From the IMG/VR virus record IMGVR_UViG_3300048839_000489, positions 64,001 to 86,085 of that record: DNA of 22,085 nt; one strand, 5' to 3'. Of the stretch, positions 3,901-22,085 are shown piece by piece. Under the pieces are notes generated by a model that was given only the letters and a program-made list of their open reading frames with translations, ran no database searches and was not told the DNA's origin. Position 1 is the first letter of the stretch. The number at the start of each line of letters is the position of its first letter. Origin of the DNA: a virus. Position numbers and translations under genes: made by a program.

Positions 3901-4238
3901 TATACCTCCGAGGCTGAAATTACTTGAGACGGAGAATCCAGTGAACCTAGCTCCTCAGATGAGTACTTTTCCTTTGGAAACATTCCAGCGCCTTCGTTTT
4001 CCTTCAAGAGTGAGTTGAATCTAGTCATCAACTCATTCATACAGTCTGCGTAGGTTTCGTCAAAGTCAGCTCCTACTTTGTCTACAGAAAGCTTTACTTC
4101 TTCAACTTCGGAATCTGGAGTTTGCTTCATTGATTCCATCATCACGCATGTAATTTTCCACTGCCCGTCTTCTGATCTCGAAACAAGTGTCCTAGAACCA
4201 AATTCTCTTTGATATACATTTTCGTATTCGTTACTCAT
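3900..4238 (-). CDS. Small acidic unknown protein
   Basis: 112 residues from the ATG at 4238, preceded by AAGGAG at 7 nt. The protein is acidic, with a beta-rich first half (SRTLVSRSEDGQWKITCVMM) and a helical region around residues 55-80 (DFDETYADCMNELMTRFNSL). The tail is Ser/Glu-rich and looks unstructured. I recognise no family. It lies 10 nt after the exonuclease gene upstream and overlaps the next gene by one base, so it belongs to the replication operon. Confidence 0.65.
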   Translation of the reverse strand: MSNEYENVYQREFGSRTLVSRSEDGQWKITCVMMESMKQTPDSEVEEVKLSVDKVGADFDETYADCMNELMTRFNSLLKENEGAGMFPKEKYSSEELGSLDSPSQVISASEV

Positions 4239-4248
4239 ACTGTTCTCC

Positions 4249-5151
4249 TTATCTGCTTAATGTAAGCAACATGTTTTTAGAAACTTTCTTTGGAAGAGCG
4301 CTTTTCTTTTCTCTGCAGTAACATCCACATCCACCACATCTGTATAGAGGAAACTTGTTACTTCCGGTGTAGAAGTATTTCTTGTCGATCAATTCAAGAT
4401 CTCTGCTTCCACAATTAGTACATACAGCGTTCTCTGATTCAACATAAAGATTTAAATTTGGATGACCCTTCACCCAAGGGCGTAGCTTCAAGTAGACTTT
4501 TTCTAAAAGAATTACGTCGCCTTTGTTGTAAGTTTCCATGTACTCTAAAGCTTCTTTATCGCCAGCTACGCACTTTTTCCACAACTCAAAGTCAGTATCC
4601 ATCTTAGCTTCAAAACCAAACACGTTAGCGAGAGCATTCAAACTGTTGTGAGTAAATCCAAACTGTCTTTTAGCAACCTGTTTAGTGTCGATAACCTGAT
4701 ACGGACTTGTTGGAGGTAGCTTATTCACAATCAATCTGGTATTCATGTTTGGCACATCAAACCCAGACGCATTATGAGCGATAACGATATCAGCTTCGTC
4801 CAAGAGTTTCCAAAGTAGTTTTACAATCCTTGAATCATCCTCTCTTTTGGCTTCTTTTGGTGTAAGCCTTGCTGATAAAACTTCATCATCAAACAACCAT
4901 TTCGCAGACCAGCAAAGAGTGAACCACTCGGAAATAACTTGGTCAGCCCCAACGTTGCCTCCCCAAACGCTTTTCTGAAACACGAAAGCTCTAAGAGGTG
5001 CTGTCTCAATATCAAAAATCAAAACTTTTGGAAGAGTTGGTGGTTTGAATTCGAGAACATTGCCACTAATATCGAAACATCTAGGATGTGTAAGAGCACT
5101 GTGACCGTGCTTACATCTTTTTACAGCCTTAAACTTTTTAATGAGTTCCAT
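4249..5151 (-). CDS. DnaQ/RNase H-like 3'-5' exonuclease with C-terminal zinc ribbon
   Basis: 300 residues. Exo I is at residues 44-52 (LIFDIETAP; D47, E49), Exo II at 122-132 (IVIAHNASGFD; H126, N127, D132), and Exo III at 207-214 (TYNKGDVI; D212). This is the DEDD order of the RNase H-like exonuclease family, close to the YprB/RNase_H_2 type. A zinc ribbon follows: CTNC at 244-247 and CGGCGCYC near 272-279. Phage proofreading or processing exonucleases of this type usually act on DNA. RNA as substrate cannot be excluded, since the polymerase downstream already carries its own exonuclease domain. The start overlaps the HTH gene by 14 nt and has AAAAGGAAAA before the ATG. Confidence 0.8.
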   Translation of the reverse strand: MELIKKFKAVKRCKHGHSALTHPRCFDISGNVLEFKPPTLPKVLIFDIETAPLRAFVFQKSVWGGNVGADQVISEWFTLCWSAKWLFDDEVLSARLTPKEAKREDDSRIVKLLWKLLDEADIVIAHNASGFDVPNMNTRLIVNKLPPTSPYQVIDTKQVAKRQFGFTHNSLNALANVFGFEAKMDTDFELWKKCVAGDKEALEYMETYNKGDVILLEKVYLKLRPWVKGHPNLNLYVESENAVCTNCGSRDLELIDKKYFYTGSNKFPLYRCGGCGCYCREKKSALPKKVSKNMLLTLSR

Positions 5152-15767: not shown

Positions 15768-15772
15768 GCACA

Positions 15773-15845
15773 CTACAGAGTGTACTGTATCTTCCGTCAA
15801 TTAATGTACATTGATGCCACTTAATAAGGCATGAAGACTCTGTAG
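15773..15845 (-). ncRNA. Inter-tRNA structured spacer G
   Basis: Closed by a 9-bp perfect stem, CTACAGAGT (15773-15781) with ACTCTGTAG (15837-15845). Inner pairs are ATGCC/GGCAT and TCAAT/ATTGA. The stem starts 4 nt after the tRNA-Leu(UAG) 3' end and ends 5 nt before tRNA-Leu(UAA). No ACAGCAA motif. Confidence 0.5.
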
Positions 15846-15849
15846 GTAG

Positions 15850-16242: not shown

Positions 16243-16269
16243 AGCATCTCCTTTTTTTTTGTTTTAAAC

Positions 16270-16329
16270 GGACTTCGTTTGTGCACTAACACCAATTGTA
16301 AGCTGAATTTTTTTTGCTGTATGAAGTCC
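16270..16329 (-). ncRNA. ACAGCAA hairpin element, copy A
   Basis: RNA order: GGACTTC (16329-16323), 2 nt, ACAGCAA (16320-16314) followed by an A-run, about 37 nt, then closing GAAGTCC (16276-16270), 7 bp. It starts 3 nt after the tRNA-Gly 3' end. Confidence 0.6.
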
Positions 16330-16408: not shown

Positions 16409-16489
16409 GGCTTATCGTAACCACCACGCTGACATTTATCGACATTCAGTGTCGTAATTTTTGGAGCAGGATCTCCGCGGTTATTAGCC
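16409..16489 (-). ncRNA. Structured spacer H between RlaP and tRNA-Gly
   Basis: The two ends can pair as GGCT (16409-16412) with AGCC (16486-16489) and TAACC (16418-16422) with GGTTA (16479-16483). Between them are a CGACA/TGTCG hairpin and a GGAG/CTCC hairpin. The stem takes in the RlaP stop codon. Weaker than the other spacer elements. Confidence 0.35.
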
Positions 16490-17251
16490 TAAGCGGTTCA
16501 CCTGCATGATTGTATCCAGTAGAAAGTTATCCAGTTCGGTTGTATCATGATTAGTAACACCACCTCTTTCTGGCTTTAGTTCTACTAGCTTACTGTTTAT
16601 ATACTCTGACAGTAGCTCAGACTTTTTGGACTTTCCAAGTTCCGCCCCAGACTTTTTTGCCTCCACTAGATTCAAAATTTCGTTTTTTACCTCAGCGTCC
16701 ATGTCTATCTTTTCGATAGTCTGTAGGAAGCTGGTTGGAGGCATCCTGTCAAACTTATTGATGTACTCAATAGCTATCAGAGGTCTAAGAACATAAAGGT
16801 ATTTTTTCATGCTTACAACCTCTTCACTAAGATACCTAGCGAAATTACCTCTTGCCATATGATAGTAGTGATACTTACAGGTTGTTGCATTGTAGAAAAC
16901 ATTAGAAAGGTCAACAAGTTGATTGTAAAACGTCTCGTCTTTTCTGTACACTTTAGGGGAATTTATCCACTCCATAAGCGTAGGGTTATATTTTTCCAGG
17001 AGTCTAAGTGCTTTATCAAGACTCCAGCCGTTGACATCCAGAACTTTATTCACCGGAAGTTCTATAACGTCTCTGCCCCTATATATTTTAAAGTAATGTT
17101 CAGGACTCGGTGCATATATAAATCTGACATCAAAGTCACTATCTACAGAGTCAAAACCCCATGCGCGACTTCCAGATTCACATGCATACAGAATCTTTAC
17201 TTTATGCTCTTTTTCTATGTCGTCAAGTATTTTGTTTATTCTTTCTTCCAT
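16484..17251 (-). CDS. RlaP-type nucleotidyltransferase (RNA-repair polymerase-beta family)
   Basis: 255 residues. The N-terminus has the polymerase-beta-like signature ESGSRAWGFDSVDSDFDVRFIY: G27-S28, then metal acids D39 and D41. The family-specific DVIELPVNKVLDVNGWSLDKALRLLEKYNPTLMEWINSPKVY follows at about 61-101, and a helical C-terminal half. This is the RlaP family (RNA ligase-associated nucleotidyltransferase, COG3541). It is found with RNA ligases, RtcB-type and Ro-type genes and is proposed to act in RNA repair. AAAGGA lies 7-8 nt before the ATG. Its place inside a tRNA array and next to a Ro60-like gene suggests tRNA end repair or extension. No RNA ligase is in the window. Family secure, substrate inferred. 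Confidence 0.88.
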   Translation of the reverse strand: MEERINKILDDIEKEHKVKILYACESGSRAWGFDSVDSDFDVRFIYAPSPEHYFKIYRGRDVIELPVNKVLDVNGWSLDKALRLLEKYNPTLMEWINSPKVYRKDETFYNQLVDLSNVFYNATTCKYHYYHMARGNFARYLSEEVVSMKKYLYVLRPLIAIEYINKFDRMPPTSFLQTIEKIDMDAEVKNEILNLVEAKKSGAELGKSKKSELLSEYINSKLVELKPERGGVTNHDTTELDNFLLDTIMQVNRLG

Positions 17252-17610: not shown

Positions 17611-17617
17611 AAAAAAC

Positions 17618-17667
17618 AGACTGCTTATTTTACCTAGAGTTGGTTTTTTTTTTGCTGTTTGCAGTCT
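17618..17667 (-). ncRNA. ACAGCAA hairpin element, copy B
   Basis: RNA order: AGACTGC (17667-17661), 2 nt, ACAGCAA (17658-17652) followed by an A-run, about 27 nt, closing GCAGTCT (17624-17618), 7 bp. It begins 2 nt after the 3' end of the UAU-type tRNA. Confidence 0.65.
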
Positions 17668-17924: not shown

Positions 17925-19361
17925 TTATAAAATTACTACTCTTGCGTATCTTTCTGACAACAAAGTTCTTGTCATAACGCTTACAGGATTAACTTCACCA
18001 CTTAGTACGTTCTTCATAATGCTAGGTGAAAATCCTGATACCAAAGCTGTGCCATCCTTGTTATAGGATACAGGCACTCCTACAGAAGTTCTTAGGTTCC
18101 AGAATACAGTGTTTGGTACTCTGTATCCAGCCTCAGCATACTTTCTTTCGATTACATCCATAGCAGTTTCTGAATAAGCACCTACTGCCTCATTGAATTG
18201 CATGTCTGATAGAATTAGGATGTCGTCAGGCATTTCGCTCTGAGCTACACCGTTTCTTACAGCACTATTTAGAATAAGGTCAAATACGGCTACGATGTTT
18301 GTTGATTGAGTCCAACCGGAGGTTAGAAGCTGGTCAATTCTATTTGCTAGATTACCAGACAAAACCTGTAATGTAGGACTGGTTGAGAATGTAATGAACG
18401 CATCCTTGAATGCACCAACGTTTCTCTGTGATATATAAATACCTAACGCTACTGATGCTAGGATTGGAAGAGCGTCTCCCATCATCATGCTTCCTGACAC
18501 ATCACACACAGGTAAAATCTTTCTATCTGTGTTTACGTAGTTTGGAAGAGACGACCATTGAGCCTCCAATACATCGTCAAAAGCCTTTACACCATACTTG
18601 TATGTTGACTTGCTATAGGTGTATGCTCTGATAATGTCGTGTGGATAAATAGCTCCGGCATTAATCTTGTTGCCGGAATTTGGACTTGACAAAGACTTAG
18701 CCCAAGCACCAAATCTGCTACCATCTCTTAGAGTATAAGCATTTCTGTACTTATTGATTGCCTTTGAAGGAACTGTGCTGTAGTCAATTCTGTTCCACTC
18801 GTTGTTGCACATAAGAGTCTCAACTACCTTGGTAGCAGAAGACAAAAGCCTTCTATACTTCTTAGGCTTAATTCCCCAGATGGAGATCAAAGCCTTAGCC
18901 AAGCTTCCTTGACTCTTATTCTCTCTAGGCATCCACTTAGCACAAAGAGCGTTTCCCTTGTTCAACTCTTCCCAGATCATGGAAGCTACACTATCTTCGA
19001 TAGGAGTTCCCAAACCTACTAGAACATCGTCCCACCTTCCGTAGAAGGGAACATTGTATAGGTTAGCCTGAGCGTCATCAGGATGATTTCTACAAAGCCA
19101 CGCATACATAATTCTGAAAGTACGGCGACTTCCTTGACCCTCTCTAACATCTCTGTTGTAAAACAAAGACTTCAAAGCCAACTCTCTATTTTCGTAGAAG
19201 GCGTTTGAGAATACTGAACGAATAGTAGACTCGTCTACACCGTCATTCCACCCACCCATCTTGAAGAATAAATCCAAGTTCTTGTTTCCAGAAGATGAGT
19301 TTGTCACCATACCGTTTTCAGTACGAGTATTTCTTGTCTGCATTGCGTTTAAAAGTGACAT
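17925..19361 (-). CDS. DUF2828/Ro60-like RNA-binding ring protein with vWA domain
   Basis: 478 residues. The N-terminal two thirds is helical with SLFYNRDVREGQGSRRTFRIMYAWL near 65-89 and NVPFYGRWDDVLVG near 103-116. These are the DUF2828 signatures, related to the TROVE HEAT-like ring of Ro60. The C-terminus is a von Willebrand A domain with an intact metal site: DVSGS at 287-291, T354 in QSTN, and D386 in ILSDMQF. Ro60-type proteins bind misfolded RNAs through the ring and Y RNAs on the outside, in RNA quality control or decay. Here it sits inside a tRNA array, with an RlaP gene and structured RNAs on both sides. Its Shine-Dalgarno (AGGA, 7 nt before the ATG) lies in the closing stem of an ACAGCAA element, suggesting autoregulation. 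RNA partners unproven. Confidence 0.8.
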   Translation of the reverse strand: MSLLNAMQTRNTRTENGMVTNSSSGNKNLDLFFKMGGWNDGVDESTIRSVFSNAFYENRELALKSLFYNRDVREGQGSRRTFRIMYAWLCRNHPDDAQANLYNVPFYGRWDDVLVGLGTPIEDSVASMIWEELNKGNALCAKWMPRENKSQGSLAKALISIWGIKPKKYRRLLSSATKVVETLMCNNEWNRIDYSTVPSKAINKYRNAYTLRDGSRFGAWAKSLSSPNSGNKINAGAIYPHDIIRAYTYSKSTYKYGVKAFDDVLEAQWSSLPNYVNTDRKILPVCDVSGSMMMGDALPILASVALGIYISQRNVGAFKDAFITFSTSPTLQVLSGNLANRIDQLLTSGWTQSTNIVAVFDLILNSAVRNGVAQSEMPDDILILSDMQFNEAVGAYSETAMDVIERKYAEAGYRVPNTVFWNLRTSVGVPVSYNKDGTALVSGFSPSIMKNVLSGEVNPVSVMTRTLLSERYARVVIL

Positions 19362-19366
19362 ATCTA

Positions 19367-19434
19367 ATTCCTATCCTTTCTGCCGATGTGAGCGGCGGCT
19401 CGGATGAGCCATACAAAAAATTGCTGTAAGGAAT
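19367..19434 (-). promoter_or_regulatory. ACAGCAA element copy D' overlapping the Ro60-like ribosome binding site
   Basis: RNA order: ATTCCT (19434-19429), 1 nt, ACAGCAA (19427-19421), then a GGCTC/GAGCC hairpin (19410-19397) and a GCCG/CGGC hairpin, then closing AGGAAT (19372-19367), 6 bp. The closing strand includes the AGGA that serves as Shine-Dalgarno for the ATG at 19361. Pairing would hide the ribosome binding site. Confidence 0.55.
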
Positions 19435-19438
19435 AATC

Positions 19439-19493
19439 AGACTACCATTAGTAGTTTTTTTCCGAAACTGTTTTGAGTTGCTGTGGGTAGTCT
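19439..19493 (-). ncRNA. ACAGCAA hairpin element, copy D
   Basis: RNA order: AGACTACC (19493-19486), 1 nt, ACAGCAA (19484-19478), an AGTTT/AAACT inner hairpin, closing GGTAGTCT (19446-19439), 8 bp. It begins 2 nt after the tRNA-Lys(UUU) 3' end. Confidence 0.65.
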
Positions 19494-19981: not shown

Positions 19982-19986
19982 AAGAC

Positions 19987-20046
19987 AGACTGCTTCAATT
20001 AGTATCCATAAAAGGGAAAGTTGATTTGGTTTGCTGTTAGCAGTCT
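19987..20046 (-). ncRNA. ACAGCAA hairpin element, copy C
   Basis: RNA order: AGACTGCT (20046-20039), 1 nt, ACAGCAA (20037-20031), about 36 nt, closing AGCAGTCT (19994-19987), 8 bp. It begins 2 nt after the tRNA-Lys(CUU) 3' end and ends 5 nt before tRNA-Ile(GAU). Confidence 0.65.
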
Positions 20047-20603: not shown

Positions 20604-20921
20604 TTATTTCTTATATAAATCTTCGTAAGTTTTTATGTTGTGACAGTTTGAACAGAGAAGTTGAAGTGTTGTTATGTTTACCTTACCCAATAAAATTAGT
20701 TGATGAAGCCTAGCCCCCTTTTCAGTAGCAAGAATTCCTTTGTTTCCTCTTCTTAGTGGAACTATGTGATCTATTTCAAGAGCCCTTACATCATCTTTAT
20801 ATCCACACCTAACACACTTACCTCCAAGCAACTCTATAACTTTATGTTTGTTCATGACCCTGTATTTTCTATGAGCCGTTCTTTGATACTCTTTTCTTTT
20901 TTCTTTGTCAATAATAGGCAT
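20604..20921 (-). CDS. HNH endonuclease
   Basis: 105 residues. The HNH core is GGKCVRCG (C36, C39), LEIDHIVPLRRGN (D51, H52) and LQLLCSNCHNIKT (C90, C93, H94), a treble-clef fold with structural zinc. The N-terminus is basic and helical (KEKRKEYQRTAHRKYRVMNKHK), as in free-standing homing HNH enzymes of phages. AAGGA precedes the ATG at 9 nt. It is inserted between tRNA-Ala and tRNA-Val and may have brought in neighbouring tRNAs by homing or recombination. No intron is seen. It could also be a nicking enzyme for packaging, but it is not near terminase genes. Confidence 0.88.
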   Translation of the reverse strand: MPIIDKEKRKEYQRTAHRKYRVMNKHKVIELLGGKCVRCGYKDDVRALEIDHIVPLRRGNKGILATEKGARLHQLILLGKVNITTLQLLCSNCHNIKTYEDLYKK

Positions 20922-21947: not shown

Positions 21948-22027
21948 ATGCAGGAGGCTGGAACGTTTATACGGAGTAGTTACTTTTCTTACGTTATCTT
22001 TCCGTGACCGCACTTGTGATCCTGCAT
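21948..22027 (-). ncRNA. Inter-tRNA structured spacer E
   Basis: Closed by ATGCAGGA (22027-22020) with TCCTGCAT (21955-21948), 8 bp perfect, spanning 80 nt. It starts 2 nt after tRNA-Cys and ends 3 nt before tRNA-Arg, filling the gap exactly. No ACAGCAA motif. Confidence 0.5.
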
Positions 22028-22029
22028 AG

Positions 22030-22085
22030 AGAGCCTAATGGGAGTCGAACCCATAGTCACGGTTTTGCAGACCGTAGCCTTTACC
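22030..22085 (-). tRNA. tRNA-Cys(GCA), 5' end outside window
   Basis: The visible part has anticodon stem ACGGT/ACCGT around CTGCAAA, T-arm ATGGG/CCCAT with TTCGACT, acceptor 3' strand TAGGCTC and discriminator U. The 5' acceptor and part of the D-arm lie beyond the edge. Confidence 0.9.

What the first reader, a model, noticed from the sequence alone, without database searches (positions are those of the whole stretch)
19362..19438. Fifth ACAGCAA element hides the Shine-Dalgarno of the Ro60-like gene
The leader has ATTCCT (19434-19429), 1 nt, ACAGCAA, two GC hairpins, then AGGAAT (19372-19367). The last strand contains the AGGA that serves the ATG at 19361. The layout is the same as the inter-tRNA copies but the closing stem is the ribosome binding site. 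If the Ro60-like protein or RlaP binds ACAGCAA elements, this copy would give feedback control of Ro60-like synthesis by the level of free elements. That logic resembles ribosomal-protein autoregulation.
Basis: partly seen in the sequence, partly recalled or inferred. Interest (0 to 1): 0.8.

Follow-up and report, generated by a model that had tools for sequence, protein, structure and literature searches.

The report
RNA tags of a phage Ro60-like protein
A short RNA motif (a 7-base-pair helix followed by ACAGCAA) turns up, often in several copies, beside genes for Ro60-like RNA-binding proteins or in the tRNA arrays of the same phages, and also beside such genes in bacteria and archaea, so it is very probably the RNA partner of this protein family; the copy at 19362-19438 is a weak version that overlaps the ribosome-binding site.

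Summary
Its meaning comes from comparison. A module, AGRNUNC(7 bp)-NU-(A)CAGCAA-loop-A-rich-7 bp'-G, lies within 800 nt of 40 of 55 non-redundant DUF2828 (Ro60-like) loci. A covariance model finds it in 48 of 53 phage records with this gene and 0 of 44 without it, five of these tRNA-rich phages. Where the gene lacks a neighbouring copy, copies sit in the tRNA cluster. Bacterial and archaeal DUF2828 genes carry it too, in Lachnospiraceae inside tRNA-shaped RNAs with the helix circularly permuted and capped by a GNNA tetraloop. The predicted protein structure matches Ro60 (Z 22.5). Best reading: a Y-RNA-like ligand of DUF2828 Ro60 proteins, partly freed by tRNA processing. Copies touching or abutting the ribosome-binding site (12 of 54 starts) make autoregulation plausible but unproven. 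RlaP does not track the element. No Rfam family or held paper describes it; subscription literature could not be checked.

The parts
19367..19434 (-). Element E (the finding): ATTCCT 19434-19429, ACAGCAA 19427-19421, two GC hairpins, AGGAAT 19372-19367 overlapping the SD AGGA 19372-19369
   Evidence: read directly; 13 bits, E 1.4; degenerate member
19438..19493 (-). Element B, directly after tRNA-Lys(ttt), in tandem with E in the Ro60-like leader
   Evidence: 38.9 bits, E 1.6e-7
19986..20046 (-). Element A, nearly filling the spacer between tRNA-Lys(ctt) and tRNA-Ile(gat)
   Evidence: 42.1 bits, E 2.2e-8; 1 nt after one tRNA and 4 nt before the next
17617..17667 (-). Element C, nearly filling the spacer between tRNA-Ile(tat) and tRNA-Tyr
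   Evidence: 40.9 bits, E 4.7e-8; 1 nt and 6 nt from the tRNAs
16269..16329 (-). Element D, directly after tRNA-Gly(tcc)
   Evidence: 40.9 bits, E 4.5e-8; 2 nt after the tRNA
17925..19361 (-). Ro60-like protein gene, DUF2828/DUF7788, phrog_850, 478 aa
   Evidence: Pfam and PHROGs; AlphaFold model matches Ro60 1yvr, Z 22.5 over 413 residues

Best explanation
The ACAGCAA stem-loops are the cognate RNA ligand (Y-RNA-like partner) of the DUF2828 clade of Ro60-like proteins. The recognised module is a 7-bp helix AGR.../...YCU(G), two spacer bases, the single-stranded run (A)CAGCAA, and an A-rich opposite strand. In phage tRNA arrays the module nearly fills the spacer, so normal tRNA 3' and 5' processing would release it as a small RNA of about 60 nt. 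The same module placed before the Ro60-like gene lets free protein bind its own leader, so surplus protein would repress translation; in the window this role falls to B plus the degenerate, SD-overlapping E. Shown: module, covariation, linkage to the gene, position near start codons, Ro60 fold. Inferred: binding, release from the transcript, feedback.
For: CAGCAA is the top one of all 6-mers that follow a stem in 54 non-redundant Ro60-like leaders (20 leaders; 35 of its 53 occurrences). Within 800 nt of the gene: 81 elements in 40 of 55 loci against a mean of 5 for permuted 6-mers. Helix covariation in 111 sequences: 98.6% of cells paired, 301 double changes, slid controls at most 45% (elements were selected for pairing). 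Model hits in 48/53 gene-positive and 0/44 gene-negative phage records, 28/32 of those not used in training. Bacterial and archaeal DUF2828 loci: 63 of 76 have the module upstream against 2.3 for permuted 6-mers. Same module in two circular permutations. tRNA spacers filled to within 1-14 nt. Ro60 fold.
Against: No binding or expression data. Two contigs with the element lack the gene (G001, G003; completeness unknown) and five gene-positive records lack a hit. Known Y RNAs are longer. E itself is a poor match. Start-site overlap is a minority arrangement.
Confidence: 0.7

Rival explanations
1. The elements are tRNA-processing or spacer structures of tRNA arrays (for instance nuclease entry sites), and their link to the Ro60-like gene follows from such genes living near tRNAs.
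For: Many copies lie directly between tRNAs.
Against: 0 of 5 tRNA-rich phages without the gene (T4, T5, SEL21, S-PM2, phiCbK) have a hit; many copies are tandem in Ro60-like leaders with no adjacent tRNA; bacterial copies sit upstream of the gene.
Confidence: 0.1
2. Purely cis-acting leaders: the elements serve only to regulate the Ro60-like mRNA (autoregulation or riboswitch-like), and tRNA-array copies are titration sites or relics.
For: Enrichment of elements overlapping or abutting start regions; tandem copies in leaders.
Against: Many loci have the copies downstream of the gene (MiniLon, JoeDirt, S-CoN_Ph9, wV8) or only in distant tRNA clusters (S13, Ahp1, GAP32, OC); tRNA-shaped carriers in bacteria look like stable RNAs.
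Confidence: 0.15
3. E alone is a chance occurrence of ACAGCAA in the leader; only B (and A, C, D) are functional.
For: 13 bits, E 1.4; stem probability 0.37 given the motif; no AGR...YCUG.
Against: Motif plus stem in 0.65% of shuffled leaders; other RBS-overlapping copies also deviate from the consensus, as expected when the 3' strand is an SD or start codon; enrichment p = 3e-5.
Confidence: 0.35

Closest known systems
Bacterial Y RNAs (YrlA/YrlB) of rsr operons
   Same: Small RNAs encoded beside a Ro60 gene; tRNA-like domain in YrlA (PMC7790460) as in the Lachnospiraceae carriers here.
   Different: No Rfam family other than tRNA matches; phage copies are about 58 nt with no tRNA body of their own; the module is in the anticodon arm of tRNA-shaped carriers; partner protein is DUF2828, not PF05731.
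Metazoan Y RNAs and Ro60
   Same: Ro60 fold of the protein; helix formed by the 5' and 3' ends of the RNA (phage form).
   Different: The conserved bulged Ro-binding sequence known for Y RNAs (from memory) is not seen in the consensus; CAGCAA takes its place.
Ribosomal-protein-style autoregulatory leaders
   Same: Mimic of the natural RNA ligand placed at or beside the gene's own ribosome-binding site.
   Different: Ligand would be a Y-like RNA, not rRNA; feedback is not demonstrated.

Membership tests
Ro60 protein family | HEAT-like ring plus vWA domain as in 1yvr/2nvo | tested here: met
   AlphaFold model pLDDT 85.8; 1yvr Z 22.5, rmsd 3.9, 413 aligned; 2nvo Foldseek E 4.8e-9
Ro60 protein family | Match to Pfam TROVE PF05731 | tested here: not met
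   No PF05731 match in the window's genome or 13 other DUF2828 phages; the gene is PF11443/PF25043. A remote relative, not a TROVE member by this profile.
Bacterial Y RNA (YrlA) | Encoded near a Ro60-family gene | tested here: met
   40 of 55 loci within 800 nt; 48/53 records
Bacterial Y RNA (YrlA) | tRNA-like domain | tested here: inconclusive
   Present in carriers of Lachnospiraceae and CCNA10; absent from the phage elements, which are only neighbours of tRNAs
Bacterial Y RNA (YrlA) | Match to a described RNA family | tested here: not met
   cmscan finds only tRNA in the window, in 20 phage loci and in 6 bacterial loci
Bacterial Y RNA (YrlA) | Binds the Ro60 protein | not testable with these tools
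   needs a binding assay
Bacterial Y RNA (YrlA) | Module shared with canonical TROVE/rsr loci | tested here: inconclusive
   Only four TROVE loci in 199 genomes; none has a clear module
Autoregulatory leader | Ligand-like element at the gene's own start site | tested here: met
   Overlap 5/54 against 14/2466 starts, adjacent 7/54 against 11/2466
Autoregulatory leader | SD buried by the element in the window | tested here: inconclusive
   Fold depends on context; AGG of the SD mostly unpaired in three of four windows
Autoregulatory leader | Synthesis falls when the protein binds | not testable with these tools
   needs a reporter assay

The most novel reading that the evidence does not exclude
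A previously unrecognised Y-RNA-like system shared by phages, bacteria and archaea: DUF2828 Ro60 proteins recognise a topology-independent module (helix + CAGCAA). Phages make it from tRNA-array spacers and hosts make it inside tRNA-shaped RNAs at the anticodon arm, tying the protein to tRNA damage, repair or decoy functions during infection; the protein also titrates its own leader.
Probability: 0.5. Interest if true: 0.93.

Novelty: new variant of a known kind. Interest (0 to 1): 0.85.

Why it matters
tblastn finds relatives of this Ro60-like protein in 682 GenBank phage records, among them phages of E. coli, Vibrio, Listeria, Mycobacterium and Campylobacter; their RNA partner and function are not described in the papers I could search. 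A defined ligand of about 58 nt with a fixed motif makes the question directly testable by gel shift, pull-down sequencing and deletion. It also extends the Ro60/Y RNA partnership to phage tRNA arrays and to archaeal sequences, and suggests that tRNA clusters carry non-tRNA cargo.

Tried and rejected
ACAGCAA by itself: not enriched in the window. Rfam: nothing above threshold but tRNA. RlaP as partner: only 11-14 of 42 records have it. T4 rnaC/rnaD small RNAs: annotated beside the T4 tRNAs, but T4 has no model hit. A close relative of this phage to test conservation of E: none found (best protein identity about 42% in GenBank phages, 41% for the single IMG/VR hit of the plain query). The blind pattern TAGACTNCNNACAGCAA: most matches are chance; the contigs with a full stem (G001-G004) were kept, and two of the four carry DUF2828. 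Sequence search of the PDB found no Ro60; the fold search did. Canonical TROVE loci: only four obtained, inconclusive.

Full report
WHAT WAS CLAIMED.

OBSERVATION. All letters are at the stated coordinates. The gene at 17925-19361(-) is DUF2828/DUF7788, phrog_850; RlaP is at 16484-17251(-). The five minus-strand ACAGCAA copies have their 5' ends at 20037, 19484, 19427, 17658 and 16320. Four are clean members of one family (38.9-42.1 bits); the leader copy scores only 13 bits, E 1.4. Given the motif, a 6-bp stem arises in 37% of shuffles, and the predicted fold does not clearly bury the SD. On this window alone the claim would be weak.

COMPARISON. Leaders of other Ro60-like genes, whose proteins are 36-51% identical to the window protein, carry the same thing: three tandem copies in Listeria phage LMTA-34, five in Aeromonas phage 4_4572, two in Campylobacter phage CJLB-7, three in Bacillus phage vB_BcoS-136, four in L001, one in Stenotrophomonas phage DLP_6 and one in KVP40. 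In KVP40, Vibrio phage 1.081 and G002 the start codon itself is in the 3' strand. A test over all 6-mers puts CAGCAA first by far. Apparent control hits turned out to lie largely just downstream of the Ro60-like gene: phages such as MiniLon, JoeDirt, Staphylococcus S-CoN_Ph9, Klebsiella FBKp34 and wV8 keep their copies there. Copies lie on the gene's strand (109 against 16, the latter at chance level), and 2 of 104 lie inside a same-strand ORF.

CONSENSUS. AGRNUNC - NU - (A/U)CAGCAA - about 35 nt, A-rich before the 3' strand - GNANYCU - G; 7 bp, all covarying. The elements were selected for pairing, so percent-paired is partly by construction; the permuted-motif controls are not affected by that.

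CO-OCCURRENCE. With a covariance model of 44 elements, 40 of 42 gene-positive records have hits and 8 of 10 further ones; one more gene-positive record found among the controls has none: 48 of 53. By my count 28 of the 32 records that contributed no training sequence are positive. Gene-negative records: 0 of 39 IMG/VR contigs of 31-278 kb and 0 of 5 tRNA-rich phages. Two fragments chosen because they hold the element (G001, G003) lack the gene; their completeness is unknown. In S13, Ahp1, GAP32 and OC the elements are in or near tRNA clusters instead. Of four contigs found only by the motif pattern and showing a full stem, two carry DUF2828.

tRNA SPACERS. In the window, elements A and C begin 1 nt after one tRNA and end 4-6 nt before the next; L093, L108 and L131 are similar. 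Inference: tRNA end-processing alone would free them.

CELLULAR RELATIVES. DUF2828 genes on contigs of Clostridia, Chloroflexota, Spirochaetia and archaea (some may be prophage or misbinned) have the module upstream: 63 of 76 loci. In 1.7-Mb and 5.3-Mb genomes the only model hits are at that gene, although five other such genomes gave no hit at that threshold. In Lachnospiraceae and the complete genome of Clostridiales bacterium CCNA10 the motif lies in tRNA-shaped RNAs (Rfam tRNA 50-52 bits with a large insertion at the anticodon arm). There the helix is often closed the other way round: YCUU-GNNA-AAGR-NN-CAGCAA, with a four-base G..A loop in 35 of 36 and an A-rich strand before it. The same helix, 2-nt spacer, motif and A-rich strand in two connectivities point to one protein-recognition module (inference).

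PROTEIN. The AlphaFold model (pLDDT 85.8) matches Ro60 over nearly its whole length, including a 2025 entry for a Thermus phage Ro60. RlaP is present in only a minority of the records.

MECHANISM. I read the module as the RNA ligand of DUF2828 Ro60 proteins, comparable to Y RNAs for Rsr. Known biology (PMC7790460): Rsr and Y RNA work with PNPase in structured-RNA decay, and YrlA has a tRNA-like domain. Start-site copies are enriched (the control set still holds duplicates of one Ro60-like gene, which makes the test conservative), which supports feedback as a secondary role. For the window, B plus E would be the control site; I give autoregulation through E itself about 0.4.

NOVELTY. No Rfam family other than tRNA, and none of the papers searched, describes the module or DUF2828 in phages. 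The jumbo-phage survey notes TROVE proteins only (PMC7824862). Subscription papers, including the key Y RNA ones and any paper behind PDB 9l5y, were not readable, so earlier description cannot be excluded.

Noticed in passing
window 21958-22085 and L011:1-128: The two ends of the 86-kb record are identical, so the phage genome is probably complete and circular (or terminally redundant); the tRNA array continues across the join.
   Followed up: partly
L011:3824-3920 (G000, outside the window): A further ACAGCAA between two tRNA-Glu genes with GTCATT/AATGAC stem next to it; not found by the covariance model.
   Followed up: partly
window 15768-15848; L011:3681-3747, 4000-4085: Other inter-tRNA spacers form long terminal stems without ACAGCAA (for example CTACAGAGT..ACTCTGTAG); function unknown.
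   Followed up: no
L304:4013-4132, 4345-4470, 4552-4669; L272 about 4637: tRNA-shaped RNAs with a large anticodon-arm insertion, most carrying the ACAGCAA module, upstream of bacterial DUF2828 genes; one ends in encoded CCA.
   Followed up: partly
L093 (G001) and L108 (G003): Strong elements in tRNA arrays but no DUF2828 or phrog_850 gene in these 70-kb and 40-kb contigs.
   Followed up: partly
L331 minus strand near 585-661; L333:165-235: A shared sequence GGGTTACTTCGACTGTTA upstream of canonical TROVE genes, possibly a YrlA-type RNA.
   Followed up: no
window 20604-20921: HNH-endonuclease-like gene between tRNAs, a possible mobile element of the array.
   Followed up: no
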